Positions 16,050 to 22,314 of a DNA stretch of 64,000 nucleotides are shown in pieces. Under the pieces are notes generated by a model. It saw nothing but the letters and a program-made list of their open reading frames with translations, did not search any database and was not told the origin of the DNA. The stretch spans positions 179,358-243,357 of the forward strand of contig NW_005178470.1 of NCBI RefSeq assembly GCF_000341285.1, read 5' to 3'. A program made the position numbers and the translations under genes. The number at the start of each line of letters is the position of its first letter. The stretch's first letter is position 1. Source of the DNA: Galdieria sulphuraria. Its lineage: Eukaryota > Rhodophyta > Bangiophyceae > Galdieriales > Galdieriaceae.

Positions 16050-17369
<1,320 letters not shown>

Positions 17370-17595: not shown

Positions 17596-17809
17596 AAATA
17601 GTTAGCTTGAAACTTGAAATGAAAGACCGCACTCCTTCCACTGTTTCACCGAAAAGACCAAAACCTATAGGACACAAGCCTTTGTTCTTATCGCAAACTT
17701 TAGAATCACTCTCTTTTCAAACAGTCAATTTCCAGACCTGTCTCCAAGACTACCTCATCTCTTCAATGATCTTATTTTGGGAGAAGAGCACGGTTCACAG
17801 GGAGCACCA

Positions 17810-19960
17810 ATGTCTCCTCCTAAACAAGAAGCCTCAAAATCTACTGCTGACGAAATGTTTGGCTTCCATAGCATCTTTCAAGGGGATAATGAAACGAGTC
17901 TACAAACCAATCTTACGAAAACTCAACCGGAGAAACCTGTAGATTCTGATACTCAGCATTTGCCTGACTTGGACAGTAACGATACAGTCCAAGAAGTGCA
18001 GAGTCTCGAAGATAAATTTATTAGCACTTTATTTTTTGGAATGTCACTCGGTACATTCAGCACTCGCTATAGACTAACCAAACTTCACTGGATCAAATAC
18101 TTTTTAGGAGACGGAAGGTATTTATTGGGTGGAGTAGTTCTGTCCATAGTTTATGGAATGTTACTGCCCGTGTTTGCTCTGTTGATTGGTAGAATATTGA
18201 ACTATTACTTTGAGTTGGCTGATGGCACTCGTCTGTCGAATGCATCGTATGAAGATTCCATCCTTATTCCTTTCTTTCTTTTAGGTGGTGTCGCGTGGTT
18301 CCTCAACTTTGGACAGAATTGCATGTGGTACCGACTTGGTATGAAGCAGACATATCTAGTTCGGAAAAGAGCTCTTTACATACTTATGGATATGCCGACT
18401 CATCGAAAGGAATTTGCGTTGAGCATGCTTCGTGAGAAACACTTGACTGAAGAGGATTCGCCAGCTTTTAGAATGATGGAGGATTTTGGCAACTTTTTTT
18501 ATTATGGCTCGGAAATGGTTTGCGCTCTAGTAATTGCTTTTGTTGGCAGCTGGCAGCTGACGCTACTCTTGTGTGGCTCTGGTCTGCTTTTAGTCGGCAC
18601 TGGCATATTCGAGATAAAGATGCTAGAACAGTCTTTGCAACGAACTCGTACTCAAACTGAAGTAGAAAGTCATGAGAAACGTATCTTGGATAGTCTCCCA
18701 TTGATTCACGAATGTAATACAGAACGCGAAGAATATCAAGTCTATTGCCAACTTTTAGATGATTTCTTCCTTGAAAATCTTAAAAGAAGAAGATTATACA
18801 TCGCTTCTGCAAGCGTCTCTGTTTTGCTTGTCACGGAGATTTACATCATTGGCATTTGGTTTAGCGCTTGGCTAGCAGAACAGAAAATGATAAGCAAAGG
18901 GGATATCGTCAGTGTTCTTTTAGCTATTGGATTGGCTGCTGTGGCTATTGTAAGGTCGGTGCGCTTATTCCAGAGCGTTCGTGACTCCCGTTTTCACGTC
19001 GAAGAATTTTTTAGTACGTTTCGTAGAGACAACTCCGAGAATTCATGGTTTAAGAGTCATGCCTTGGTCATTTCTAAACGTCGCCTTCATGGCGAATTAG
19101 AAGTTCAGAATTTGAGGTTTCCAAATGAAAATTGGCAAAGAAGCAAGGGAATGTCCTTTTATGTGAGAAGAGGGGAAATTGTTGCTCTGGTCAGTAGAGA
19201 TTTGGAAGAAGTTCATAAGATAATTGCCATGATTCAACGCAATATTCCTAGTGAATGTGGATTGATTACAATTGATGGCGTTGATATTACGCGGTTCAAT
19301 GGAACCAGTTTCCGTTCCATTGTAGGCAATGTTTGCAATGCGAAAACGTTATTGGAGGGTACAATTGTGGAAAATCTTCAGTATGGGATGCGCGATGTGA
19401 ATTTTAGTGATATTGTTACTGCTGCGCAACAGTCCTACATTCACAAATTTATTCAATCATTGCCACGAGGGTATCAAACCATGATCGGAACTCCCGATAG
19501 TCCTCACTTTCCTGAATGGGCTTATCATCGCTTAGCTTTATGTCGAGTCCTAGTTCGGCAACCTATTGTATTATTGCTTGATGCAAAGACTGTGGAGGCG
19601 TACATATACCACGATGATATTCCTGTAGATGCTTTGAAACAAATAGCAAAGGATCGTACTTGTGTGTTTGTATCCAATAGTGCCCTTGTTGTTCAAGCTG
19701 CAACAAGAATATGTGTATTTAAACATGGCGAAATTATCACACAAGGCAAACATTATGATTTGTTCGAAAATTGTTTGTATTATCGAGATGTTATTACGGA
19801 GGAATCCGAACCTTTCAACAATAGACTTTCTGTTCAAACATCTTCTCAAAATAACAAATCCTCAGAACCCCAAGCCTCGTTACTACATTTTCCGAGTAGC
19901 CTTTCGAGAAGCTCATCTGGCGCACTTGAAATGGACGATATGAACAATGGCATGGTATGA
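17810..19960 (+). CDS. ABC transporter-like protein with inactivated nucleotide-binding domain
   Basis: The layout is that of an ABCB-type half transporter: a polar N-terminus, a membrane domain with about six hydrophobic segments (roughly residues 100-410), then a nucleotide-binding domain. The NBD keeps the fold signals (AAQQSYIHKFIQSLPRGYQTMIGT, RLALCRVLVRQPIVLLLD), but the catalytic motifs are gone. Where Walker A (GxxGxGKS/T) should be it reads VSRDLEEVHKI. The LSGGQ signature reads FPEWAYHR. The glutamate after Walker B is Ala (LLLDAKT). It therefore should not hydrolyse ATP like a normal ABC protein. The frame is uninterrupted for over 700 codons, which argues for a kept function. The first ATG in frame is 17810; upstream frame without ATG suggests a missing 5' exon. 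The apparent stop at 19958 may be inside an intron. Confidence 0.8.
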   Translation: MSPPKQEASKSTADEMFGFHSIFQGDNETSLQTNLTKTQPEKPVDSDTQHLPDLDSNDTVQEVQSLEDKFISTLFFGMSLGTFSTRYRLTKLHWIKYFLGDGRYLLGGVVLSIVYGMLLPVFALLIGRILNYYFELADGTRLSNASYEDSILIPFFLLGGVAWFLNFGQNCMWYRLGMKQTYLVRKRALYILMDMPTHRKEFALSMLREKHLTEEDSPAFRMMEDFGNFFYYGSEMVCALVIAFVGSWQLTLLLCGSGLLLVGTGIFEIKMLEQSLQRTRTQTEVESHEKRILDSLPLIHECNTEREEYQVYCQLLDDFFLENLKRRRLYIASASVSVLLVTEIYIIGIWFSAWLAEQKMISKGDIVSVLLAIGLAAVAIVRSVRLFQSVRDSRFHVEEFFSTFRRDNSENSWFKSHALVISKRRLHGELEVQNLRFPNENWQRSKGMSFYVRRGEIVALVSRDLEEVHKIIAMIQRNIPSECGLITIDGVDITRFNGTSFRSIVGNVCNAKTLLEGTIVENLQYGMRDVNFSDIVTAAQQSYIHKFIQSLPRGYQTMIGTPDSPHFPEWAYHRLALCRVLVRQPIVLLLDAKTVEAYIYHDDIPVDALKQIAKDRTCVFVSNSALVVQAATRICVFKHGEIITQGKHYDLFENCLYYRDVITEESEPFNNRLSVQTSSQNNKSSEPQASLLHFPSSLSRSSSGALEMDDMNNGMV

Positions 19961-21013: not shown

Positions 21014-22314
21014 TCACAATGGTTTGCTATAAGGTTTTTCAGGTCCCGAAGAACTACGCTTGATCAATTCCACCCAATATCTAATAAGTGATAATGTCAA
21101 ATATATATATATATATATATATATATACTTTTCTACAAAACCTACCCATCGGGATCGGCAACAAATGCAATCTCTCCCACATCCTATATTCAAAATAGAT
21201 TCATCTCATTCTTCTTCCATTTATCTATCTCAACTTACTTGAAAAGGACCTGGTTTTCGAACAATCTTGTATCCTGCCCTTTCTACATTTTCACAAGCAC
21301 GATAGATATCTAGTAACCAATCCATCAAAAATAAACCCTAAATAATCCCAAGACTTTCTCTAACCATCCACTGTCAAACCAATATGACCAAATCCTCGAG
21401 GATCGACATTTCCATTATGATATATTACGCTATTATCAGATTCCGTTCCCCACTTGTGTTCCAATACCATTTTGGGGAATCGGGTACGAAGAAGAAACTC
21501 TAAACGTTCTTTGTCATCAGAAAAAGAGACTGGAATGGAGCTATCGGTGTATCCATAATAATAGTGGGTTATCTTATCATCTGAATAATCGATACGACAA
21601 AGCAACTTCATTCCCAACCCATTTTCATAAAATGATTGACTTTGAATAGGATCTTTGATACGGAACATAGTCTAGATACATATGTGTATACATAATACAT
21701 AAAGAATGAAAAGGAAGACTTACATGAGACAATACCGGATCTCTTCCAATAAGTGTTTGTTCCCCAGAAAAAGTGGGTGAATTTCTCGACATCAACTGAA
21801 TCCAATAGCCATCGGGATCAGCAACATAAGCAACGGGTGCATTCTATATAACCCAGTTGGAAGGGTTAAAAGTGTGTTGCCAACTTACCTTCGATTCACT
21901 TGTTGTGATGACTGCTACATTATGCTTCTTTAAAGCTTCTACTGCTTGATGTACGTCATCCACTATAAAGCCAATGTAACCAAACCCTTTAGGTTCTTTG
22001 TTACCGTTGTGATAACAAAAATGGGGATCCTTTTCTGTACCCCAGTTATGAGTCAGTTCCAAGGTAGGGTAAGGAACATTCCATAACCACTGAGCACGTT
22101 GTGTTTGTGATTGTTCCATAGAAGGTGGTGTGTCTTGAGTATACGCAAAGAAATAGAGTGAAAACGTGAGACTGGGAAAGTCCAACCGAGTCAACAATTT
22201 CATTCCTAGTTTGTTTTCATAAAAGTCTTTGCTCTTTTCAGGGTCTTTGATGCGAATCATAGTTTGAGCAAATACAGGGTTCCTTCCTATCAAAGCCAGT
22301 TGTGGTGAAGTCAT
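21014..22314 (-). CDS. Glyoxalase I (lactoylglutathione lyase), two-domain form
   Basis: Isomerises the hemithioacetal of methylglyoxal and glutathione to S-lactoylglutathione. Two tandem glyoxalase domains are visible. The first starts TMIRIKDPEKSKDFYENKLGM and ends VAYVADPDGYWIQL. The second repeats it as MFRIKDPIQSQSFYENGLGM and ends FVADPDGYWVELIKR. Both have the GxGHIGL/GFGYIGF turn with the metal-ligand region and ELTHNWG/LEHKWG. Six exons join through about 45-60 nt GT-AG introns; the tail is spliced across an intron holding a TA microsatellite, ending at TGA 21014. The two-domain form is known from plants and yeast. No transit peptide at the ATG 22314, so cytosolic (inference). Confidence 0.93.
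21101..21127. repeat. (AT)13 microsatellite in a glyoxalase I intron
   Basis: Uninterrupted AT dinucleotide run lying inside the last intron of the glyoxalase gene, between ADPDG and YWVEL. Likely length-variable. Confidence 0.9.

What the first reader, a model, noticed from the sequence alone, without database searches (positions are those of the whole stretch)
17810..19960. An intact ABC transporter-like protein that has lost Walker A, signature and catalytic glutamate
Over 700 uninterrupted codons keep the membrane domain and NBD scaffold, yet the P-loop reads VSRDLEEVHK, the LSGGQ site reads FPEWAYHR and the Walker B partner is Ala. Losing all three at once while the frame stays open suggests a transporter turned receptor, channel regulator or ATP-independent partner. 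A young decaying gene is the other option.
Basis: partly seen in the sequence, partly recalled or inferred. Interest (0 to 1): 0.75.

Follow-up and report, generated by a model that had tools for sequence, protein, structure and literature searches.

The report
Conserved ABC transporter without ATP motifs
A membrane protein of hot-spring red algae (Galdieria) keeps the shape of an ATP-driven pump while its ATP-using residues have been replaced, and the relatives found in the genus share this, so it is probably a kept non-pumping protein rather than a dying gene.

Summary
Window 17810-19960 (+) encodes an uninterrupted 716-residue half-size ABCB protein. Walker A, LSGGQ and the catalytic Glu are gone, as are the A-loop Tyr, Q-loop Gln, D-loop Asp and H-loop His; the Walker B Asp remains. 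Three orthologues were found: G. partita (86% identity), an unnamed JGI contig (74%) and G. phlegrea Soos (60%). None has a normal Walker A, signature, Q-loop or H-loop, and the signature position reads PEWA in all four, so this is not a young decaying copy. The frame is open at 60-86% identity, where simulated neutral drift gave a mean of 6-18 stops and 0 of 100 runs per level stayed open. NBD changes are conservative; the tree shows a very long stem and short crown branches. Because one chain lacks both its Walker motifs and its signature, both composite ATP sites are damaged in any dimer, unlike one-degenerate-site transporters. Best reading: a conserved pseudo-ABC protein working without ATP hydrolysis at a normal site, as a regulatory partner or as an ATP-independent channel or receptor. 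dN/dS, expression and partner are untested. The conserved N-terminal leader lies in another frame in this assembly.

The parts
17810..19960 (+). CDS of the pseudo-ABC half transporter, 716 aa from the first ATG (a database model, P0002, starts at 17855)
   Evidence: ORF; P0002 of 701 aa on a contig of 291449 bases, the length of contig C6; PF00664 64.4 bits, cut-off 28
18080..19054 (+). transmembrane domain (residues 91-415), ABCB exporter fold
   Evidence: AF2 model, 21 of 32 ten-residue blocks over pLDDT 90; PF00664; 90.5, 82.5 and 66.8% identity to the three orthologues
19088..19795 (+). nucleotide-binding domain (residues 427-662), ATP site lost, scaffold partly kept
   Evidence: PF00005 20.1 bits, under its cut-off of 25; AF2 blocks at 75-97; 86.4, 77.9 and 62.7% identity to orthologues
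19193..19219 (+). Walker A position (residues 462-470) reading SRDLEEVHK; Lys468 is Val; acidic residues in the former phosphate loop
   Evidence: orthologues Val, Val, Leu, Gly at 468 against Lys in 110 of 110 others; modelled helix begins at 465
19337..19339 (+). Q-loop Gln510 replaced by Asn
   Evidence: Asn in 4 of 4 orthologues, Gln in 108 of 110 others
19508..19522 (+). signature position (residues 567-571) reading FPEWA
   Evidence: PEWA in 4 of 4; Ser568 in 110 of 110 others, Gly570 in 109 of 110
19580..19585 (+). Walker B Asp591 (kept) and Ala592 in place of the catalytic Glu
   Evidence: Ala, Ala, Ser, Asp in orthologues; Glu in 94 and Asp in 16 of 110 others
19601..19603 (+). D-loop Asp598 replaced by Tyr
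   Evidence: Tyr in 4 of 4, Asp in 110 of 110 others
19676..19678 (+). H-loop His623 replaced by Asn
   Evidence: Asn, Asn, Asn, Arg in orthologues; His in 104 of 110 others, Gln in 5, Ser in 1
19796..19957 (+). C-terminal tail with a Ser-rich SSSG..E.D motif
   Evidence: 83.3, 63.0 and 27.5% identity to orthologues; S701 S702 S703 G704 E707 D709 invariant in the alignment
17619..17809 (+). conserved N-terminal leader of two orthologues, present here in two frames with a change of frame at about 17714-17725
   Evidence: tblastn of P0003 residues 1-34 (82%, frame 2, 17619-17720) and 33-110 (76%, frame 1, from 17714)

Best explanation
This is a conserved pseudo-ABC transporter of the genus Galdieria. 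A half-size ABCB protein from the eukaryotic P-glycoprotein-like branch went through a burst of change in both its membrane domain and its NBD before the sampled Galdieria lineages split, and lost its ATP site. It has since been kept as a folded protein under purifying selection. (Sequence and conservation are shown; the fold is predicted; selection is inferred from protein data and a simulation.) Mechanism, inferred: the chain still forms an ABCB-type dimer, but since it lacks both its Walker motifs and its signature, neither composite ATP site is normal in a homodimer or in a heterodimer with a canonical half. The NBD would then serve as a rigid dimerisation and docking module, and the membrane domain would work without an ATP power stroke. 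The two leading forms are a regulatory or scaffold partner that holds a canonical half transporter inactive or localised, and an ATP-independent gated channel or receptor. I give them about equal weight.
For: None of the four orthologues has a normal Walker A, signature, Q-loop, D-loop or H-loop; the replaced signature (PEWA), Q-loop (Asn510) and D-loop (Tyr598) residues are the same in 4 of 4. Frame: neutral drift to 86, 74.5 and 60% protein identity gives means of 6.0, 11.2 and 18.0 stops, with 0 of 100 stop-free runs at each level; for the NBD alone the means are 1.9, 3.2 and 5.7, with 11, 3 and 0 of 100 stop-free. NBD replacements are conservative: mean BLOSUM62 +0.91, +0.56 and +0.16 against simulated neutral -0.41, -0.46 and -0.52 (sd 0.31, 0.22, 0.20). 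Other conserved NBD positions are kept more than ATP-site positions. ATP-site positions are invariant among the four orthologues about as often as the rest of the NBD (11 of 23 against 118 of 213). Tree: stem 3.94 changes per column against 0.036-0.28 for branches inside the family, within a clade of P-gp-like halves and own C35 (100/99); TMD alone and NBD alone also have long stems (2.85 and 3.13 on the family side of a midpoint root). AF2 model pLDDT 81, pTM 0.74, matching P-gp, CmABCB1, TmrAB and MsbA structures.
Against: No function, expression, dN/dS or partner was tested. Only three orthologues were found, two of them with a species name. At Walker A, the Glu position and the H-loop the replacements differ between species, so there the data show loss, not a new motif; P0004 keeps the first Walker A Gly, and P0005 has Asp at 592, as 16 of 110 others do. 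Between the window and G. phlegrea the Walker A and H-loop stretches are less alike than the NBD as a whole (6 of 11 and 1 of 8 against 148 of 236). Changes in the C-terminal tail are not conservative (mean BLOSUM +0.33, -0.60, -0.70), so the tails may drift. The AF2 model was fed 110 canonical homologues, which pulls it towards the canonical fold; with the five family rows alone it failed (pLDDT 33.9). In this assembly the conserved N-terminal leader is out of frame. In a smaller tree own C50, outside the clade, joins C35 (88/92), so the exact branch is unsure. Weak or unusual nucleotide binding is not excluded.
Confidence: 0.68

Rival explanations
1. Young or ongoing pseudogene: the gene recently lost its function and has not yet gathered stops.
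For: The leader shared by P0003 and P0004 is split between two frames in the window. The Pfam NBD score is below cut-off in the window and in G. partita (20.1 and 23.0, cut-off 25) but above it in P0004 and P0005 (30.1 and 28.2), so the window lineage has drifted a little further. The C-terminal tail changes look unconstrained.
Against: Loss of the Walker A, signature, Q-loop, D-loop and H-loop residues is shared by all four orthologues. The main frame is open at 60-86% identity against means of 6-18 stops expected. NBD changes are conservative.
Confidence: 0.06
2. Regulatory half of a heterodimer with a canonical half transporter, best candidate the P-gp-like half gene on contig C35, where the pseudo-half controls or silences the active half. 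This is one form of the best explanation.
For: C35 falls in the same clade and, of the four own-genome halves compared, is the only one that aligns with the window protein over nearly its whole length (584 columns, 21.6%). Heterodimeric ABC exporters of unequal halves are known (PMC5216877 passages; PMC7756269 passages).
Against: The four own-genome halves compared (C35, C50, C5, C43) have canonical Walker A, signature, Walker B and H-loop motifs, and none shows the complementary degeneration of a co-evolved partner; two further half genes (C13, C24) were not assembled. A sister relation to C35 is neither supported nor rejected (p-AU 0.483). The genes lie on different contigs.
Confidence: 0.4
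3. Homodimeric ATP-independent channel, facilitator or ligand receptor built on the ABCB fold. This is the other form of the best explanation.
For: The membrane domain is slightly better conserved than the NBD (90.5 against 86.4%, 82.5 against 77.9%, 66.8 against 62.7%) and has moved far from other ABCB sequences: a search with the membrane domain alone returned only the four Galdieria proteins among the 7998 candidates scored (a capped list).
Against: Nothing in the sequence names a ligand or ion, and the conserved NBD needs a separate reason to be kept.
Confidence: 0.35
4. Ordinary transporter with one degenerate site, as in TM287/288, TAP, ABCB11 or Pdr5, where the other site still drives transport.
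For: Changes of the signature, of the catalytic Glu and of the H-loop are typical of degenerate sites (PMC7756269 and PMC7544095 passages). G. phlegrea has Asp at the Glu position, the commonest change there (passage).
Against: In the cases described in those passages the damage is split between the two NBDs, so that one composite site stays whole (for example Pdr5 and ABCB11). Here one NBD has lost both its Walker side and its signature side, so no whole site can form with any partner.
Confidence: 0.1

Closest known systems
P-glycoprotein / ABCB1 and plant ABCB1, ABCB19 (full-length ABCB exporters)
   Same: Membrane domain and NBD align over residues about 100-666 with both halves of P-gp (whole-chain E about 1e-80); the family falls in a clade with halves of such proteins; fold matches.
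   Different: Half-size; ATP-site motifs missing; membrane domain about 14-17% identical to the halves of full-length relatives compared.
CmABCB1 (3wme, 3wmf, 7vr5; Cyanidioschyzon merolae, organism recalled)
   Same: Half-size ABCB protein, of a related alga; fold match TMq 0.62.
   Different: Scores 98.8 bits against about 270 for P-gp in the PDB search. Titled a multidrug transporter, so presumably ATP-driven; its motifs were not inspected here.
Exporters with one degenerate site (TM287/288, TmrAB, TAP1/2, ABCB11, Pdr5)
   Same: Natural change of ATP-site residues; in ABCB11 the non-canonical residues are conserved (PMC7544095, PMC7756269 passages).
   Different: They keep one whole composite site; here Walker A, catalytic Glu, A-, Q-, D- and H-loop residues and the signature are lost in the same NBD.
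CFTR and SUR (ABC fold turned channel or channel regulator; recalled, except CFTR's Ser at the catalytic Glu)
   Same: Precedent for an ABC exporter fold used as channel or channel regulator.
   Different: They still bind ATP and keep one whole site (recalled).

Membership tests
ABCB-type exporter | ABC membrane domain | tested here: met
   PF00664 64.4 bits, cut-off 28; met also by P0003, P0004, P0005
ABCB-type exporter | NBD recognised as ABC_tran | tested here: inconclusive
   PF00005 below the cut-off of 25 in the window (20.1) and P0003 (23.0), above it in P0004 (30.1) and P0005 (28.2); fold modelled as NBD; P-gp alignment spans it
ABCB-type exporter | overall fold | tested here: met
Functional ABC ATPase | Walker A GxxGxGK(S/T) | tested here: not met
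   Lys468 absent in 4 of 4 orthologues, present in 110 of 110 others
Functional ABC ATPase | signature LSGGQ | tested here: not met
   PEWA in 4 of 4
Functional ABC ATPase | catalytic Glu and H-loop His | tested here: not met
   Ala, Ala, Ser, Asp and Asn, Asn, Asn, Arg; the Asp of P0005 also occurs in 16 of 110 others
Functional ABC ATPase | ATP hydrolysis | not testable with these tools
   needs purified protein
P-gp-like branch | phylogenetic placement | tested here: met
   12-row clade with P-gp-like halves and own C35, 100/99; position within it unresolved and the stem is very long
P-gp-like branch | full-length TMD-NBD-TMD-NBD chain | tested here: not met
   one TMD and one NBD in 4 of 4
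One-degenerate-site ABC exporter | one composite site remains whole | tested here: not met
   both the Walker side and the signature side lost in one chain
Pseudogene | broken frame and neutral drift over the domains | tested here: not met
   no stop in 716 codons; simulation; but the leader upstream changes frame

The most novel reading that the evidence does not exclude
A genus-wide ABC exporter-fold protein with no working nucleotide site of its own: its NBD is a pseudo-ATPase kept as a structural or regulatory module with its own conserved replacement residues (PEWA at the signature, Asn in the Q-loop, Tyr in the D-loop), so that no normal ATP site can form with any partner. It would act as an ATP-independent channel or receptor, or as a dedicated pseudo-subunit that silences or places an active ABCB half.
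Probability: 0.6. Interest if true: 0.75.

Novelty: new variant of a known kind. Interest (0 to 1): 0.62.

Why it matters
ABC transporters are defined by their ATP motor. The naturally degenerate ones in the passages seen here (PMC7756269, PMC7544095, PMC5216877) keep one working composite site. A conserved ABCB protein that has replaced nearly every ATP-site residue in one chain, and stayed under constraint across sampled species of a genus, would be a natural test of what the exporter fold can do without its motor and of what an NBD is kept for when it cannot bind ATP normally. It can be studied: PMC13353863 (passages seen) reports that gene manipulation has been transferred to Galdieria partita, which carries the 86% identical orthologue.

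Tried and rejected
Young pseudogene: rejected for the membrane domain and NBD. Chance or alignment error at the motifs: rejected; the Walker A region aligns without gaps to P-gp, and 110 of 110 aligned others carry the residues. In a loose regex scan of all 231 proteins held, P0003, P0004 and P0005 lacked both motifs; P0001 and P0002 escaped that list only through a chance SKGM match, and none of the other 226 lacked both.

Origin from one half of a split full-length transporter: tried with halves of five full-length relatives; unresolved. GAL with C-halves is in the best tree at support 51/95; GAL with N-halves p-AU 0.5; GAL with C35 p-AU 0.483; C35 with N-halves 0.09; C35 with C-halves 0.28. 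The long stem makes any placement weak.

Orthologues in Cyanidium or Cyanidioschyzon: none seen in the lists of three protein searches, but one search listed 120 of 159, each search scored only about 8000 candidates sharing most words, and ABC proteins crowd these, so absence is not shown. The first AF2 model with five rows was useless (pLDDT 33.9). dN/dS: no nucleotide sequence of the orthologues was reached, so a neutral simulation on the window CDS (substitutions only, one lineage) stood in for it.

Literature: searches for Galdieria with ABC transporter and pseudogene (2 papers), with ABC transporter (20 of 41 listed) and with ABCB (3 papers), and for degenerate, ATP-independent or pseudo-ABC wording (none; each) showed no title or abstract start that describes this protein. 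Dates were sought (10 of 17 listed). PMC9812998 was seen in passages. PMC12252169 was seen as abstract and outline plus a term search in which ABC did not occur. PMC13353863, PMC13062707, PMC5216877, PMC7544095 and PMC7756269 were seen in passages.

Full report
What is there. The window belongs to a 12.0 Mb, 102-contig genome (contig C6:179358-243357). A frame on the + strand is open from 17777 to the stop at 19960; the first ATG is at 17810 and gives 716 residues. A database model starts at 17855 (P0002, 701 aa, on a contig with the length of C6). It is the only close match in its genome: the next best covers only NBD residues 444-652 at 28% identity (a lower bound on copies). Pfam finds the ABC membrane domain (64.4 bits, cut-off 28), while ABC_tran scores 20.1, under its cut-off of 25. 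Both halves of P-glycoprotein align over residues about 100-666 (whole-chain E about 1e-80).

The ATP site. The four Galdieria proteins were aligned with 110 other homologues, hand-picked from the 226 non-family proteins listed; I left out those over about 1000 residues, near copies, some partial proteins and the weak tail from P0178 on. The others are canonical: Walker A glycines and lysine, signature Ser568, Walker B Asp591 and D-loop Asp598 in 110 of 110; Gln510 in 108; His623 in 104; Glu592 in 94 with Asp in 16. The window protein has Ser, Leu, Glu and Val for the Walker A residues, Asn at 510, Pro-Glu-Trp-Ala at 568-571, Ala at 592, Tyr at 598, Asn at 623 and Asn at the A-loop Tyr439 (that alignment is less certain). 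Asp591 remains. At positions conserved in at least 80% of the others, the four orthologues all keep 1 of 16 ATP-site positions and 26 of 54 others (Fisher p = 0.0027; p = 0.034, 0.0041 and 0.0036 at cut-offs of 90, 70 and 50%).

Orthologues. Three searches of the protein collection found three: P0003 of G. partita (86% identity), P0004 from an unnamed JGI contig (74%) and P0005 of G. phlegrea Soos (60%). None has a normal Walker A, signature, Gln510, Asp598 or His623. PEWA, Asn510 and Tyr598 are the same in all four; residue 468 is Val, Val, Leu, Gly; 592 is Ala, Ala, Ser, Asp; 623 is Asn, Asn, Asn, Arg. P0004 keeps the first Walker A Gly, and the Asp592 of P0005 also occurs in 16 of the 110 others. 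So most of the loss predates the split of these lineages; at some sites the replacement is fixed, at others only the loss is shared. PMC13353863 places G. phlegrea Soos in one of two major Galdieria clades (passages); no date for that split was found in the passages seen.

Is it kept? A neutral simulation of the window CDS (transition weight 2, GC 0.40, substitutions only, 100 runs each) gave means of 6.0, 11.2 and 18.0 stops by the time identity had fallen to 86, 74.5 and 60%, with 0 of 100 runs free of stops at each level. For the NBD alone the means were 1.9, 3.2 and 5.7, with 11, 3 and 0 of 100 free. Observed NBD differences are more conservative than simulated ones (mean BLOSUM62 +0.91, +0.56 and +0.16 against -0.41, -0.46 and -0.52). 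Those in the C-terminal tail are not (+0.33, -0.60, -0.70), so the tail may be under little constraint apart from its SSSG motif. The NBD is nearly as well conserved as the membrane domain (86.4, 77.9, 62.7% against 90.5, 82.5, 66.8%). ATP-site positions are invariant among the four proteins about as often as the rest of the NBD (11 of 23 against 118 of 213), although between the window and G. phlegrea the Walker A and H-loop stretches are less alike than the whole NBD (6 of 11 and 1 of 8 against 148 of 236). A true dN/dS was not possible without DNA of the orthologues.

Where it comes from. In a tree of 33 rows the family falls in a clade of P-gp-like halves with own-genome C35 (100/99) on a stem of 3.94 changes per column, while branches inside the family are 0.036-0.28. 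In midpoint-rooted trees of 14 rows the membrane domain alone and the NBD alone give 2.85 and 3.13 on the family side of the root, with 0.19 and 2.1 on the other side. This is a burst followed by slow change. Long stems may be misplaced: in a 16-row tree own C50, outside the clade, joins C35 (88/92), and whether the family came from an N-half, a C-half or a C35-like gene is unresolved. A search with the membrane domain alone returned only the four Galdieria proteins among 7998 candidates scored (a capped list).

Fold. An AF2 model from 114 rows has mean pLDDT 81 and pTM 0.74, with NBD blocks at 75-97. In the model the helix after the first NBD strands begins at 465, inside the former Walker A loop, and that loop holds acidic residues (Asp464, Glu466, Glu467 in the window). 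Foldseek and VIA-align match P-gp, CmABCB1, MsbA and TmrAB, with many rows tied. The alignment held 110 canonical proteins, so the model leans towards the canonical fold; the family alone gave no usable model.

How it may work. [quoted passage not shown] In the degenerate exporters described there the losses are split so that one site stays whole; Pdr5, with one of the largest deviations, has its Walker and H-loop losses in NBD1 and its signature loss in NBD2. The Galdieria chain has lost both sides in the same NBD, so in a homodimer neither site is normal, and in a heterodimer with a canonical half each site has one dead side. ATP hydrolysis by the normal route is therefore unlikely whatever the partner (inference). 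The NBD is kept, so it probably serves dimerisation, docking or regulation. Four own-genome half transporters (C35, C50, C5, C43) have intact motifs and none looks like a co-evolved degenerate partner; two more (C13, C24) were not assembled. I cannot choose between a regulatory pseudo-subunit and an ATP-independent channel or receptor.

The upstream leader. P0003 and P0004 carry about 63 further N-terminal residues (51 of the first 64 identical between them); the P0005 model lacks them. In the window the matching DNA lies at 17619-17720 in one frame and continues from 17714 in another, with 82 and 76% identity to P0003. Either this strain uses a later start, or the assembly has an error, or this strain has begun to lose the leader. 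The domains themselves are intact.

Verdict. The gene is most likely a kept pseudo-ABC half transporter shared by the Galdieria lineages sampled; its function is not known beyond the inference above. It is a new variant of a known kind.

Noticed in passing
17619-17809 (+): Leader conserved in two orthologues lies in two different frames here; a real change or an assembly error could not be told apart.
   Followed up: partly
16225-17153 (+), N run about 16648-16998: Pantoate-beta-alanine ligase gene upstream (PF02569, 76.4 bits, tested on the piece 16225-16563 only), with a masked stretch of N inside the region.
   Followed up: no
21360-21668 (-) and 21844-22314 (-): Two neighbouring minus-strand frames that look alike by eye; the second is glyoxalase-like (PF00903, 52.5 bits), the first has no Pfam match and may be a fragment, an exon or a decayed copy.
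   Followed up: partly
L035 (own contig C35:110500-116500): Canonical half-size P-gp-like ABCB gene with four short introns as I drew them, the only one of four own-genome halves aligning with the window protein over nearly its whole length.
   Followed up: partly
19796-19957 (+): C-terminal tail with an invariant Ser-rich SSSG..E.D motif in all four orthologues, a possible phosphorylation or docking site.
   Followed up: no
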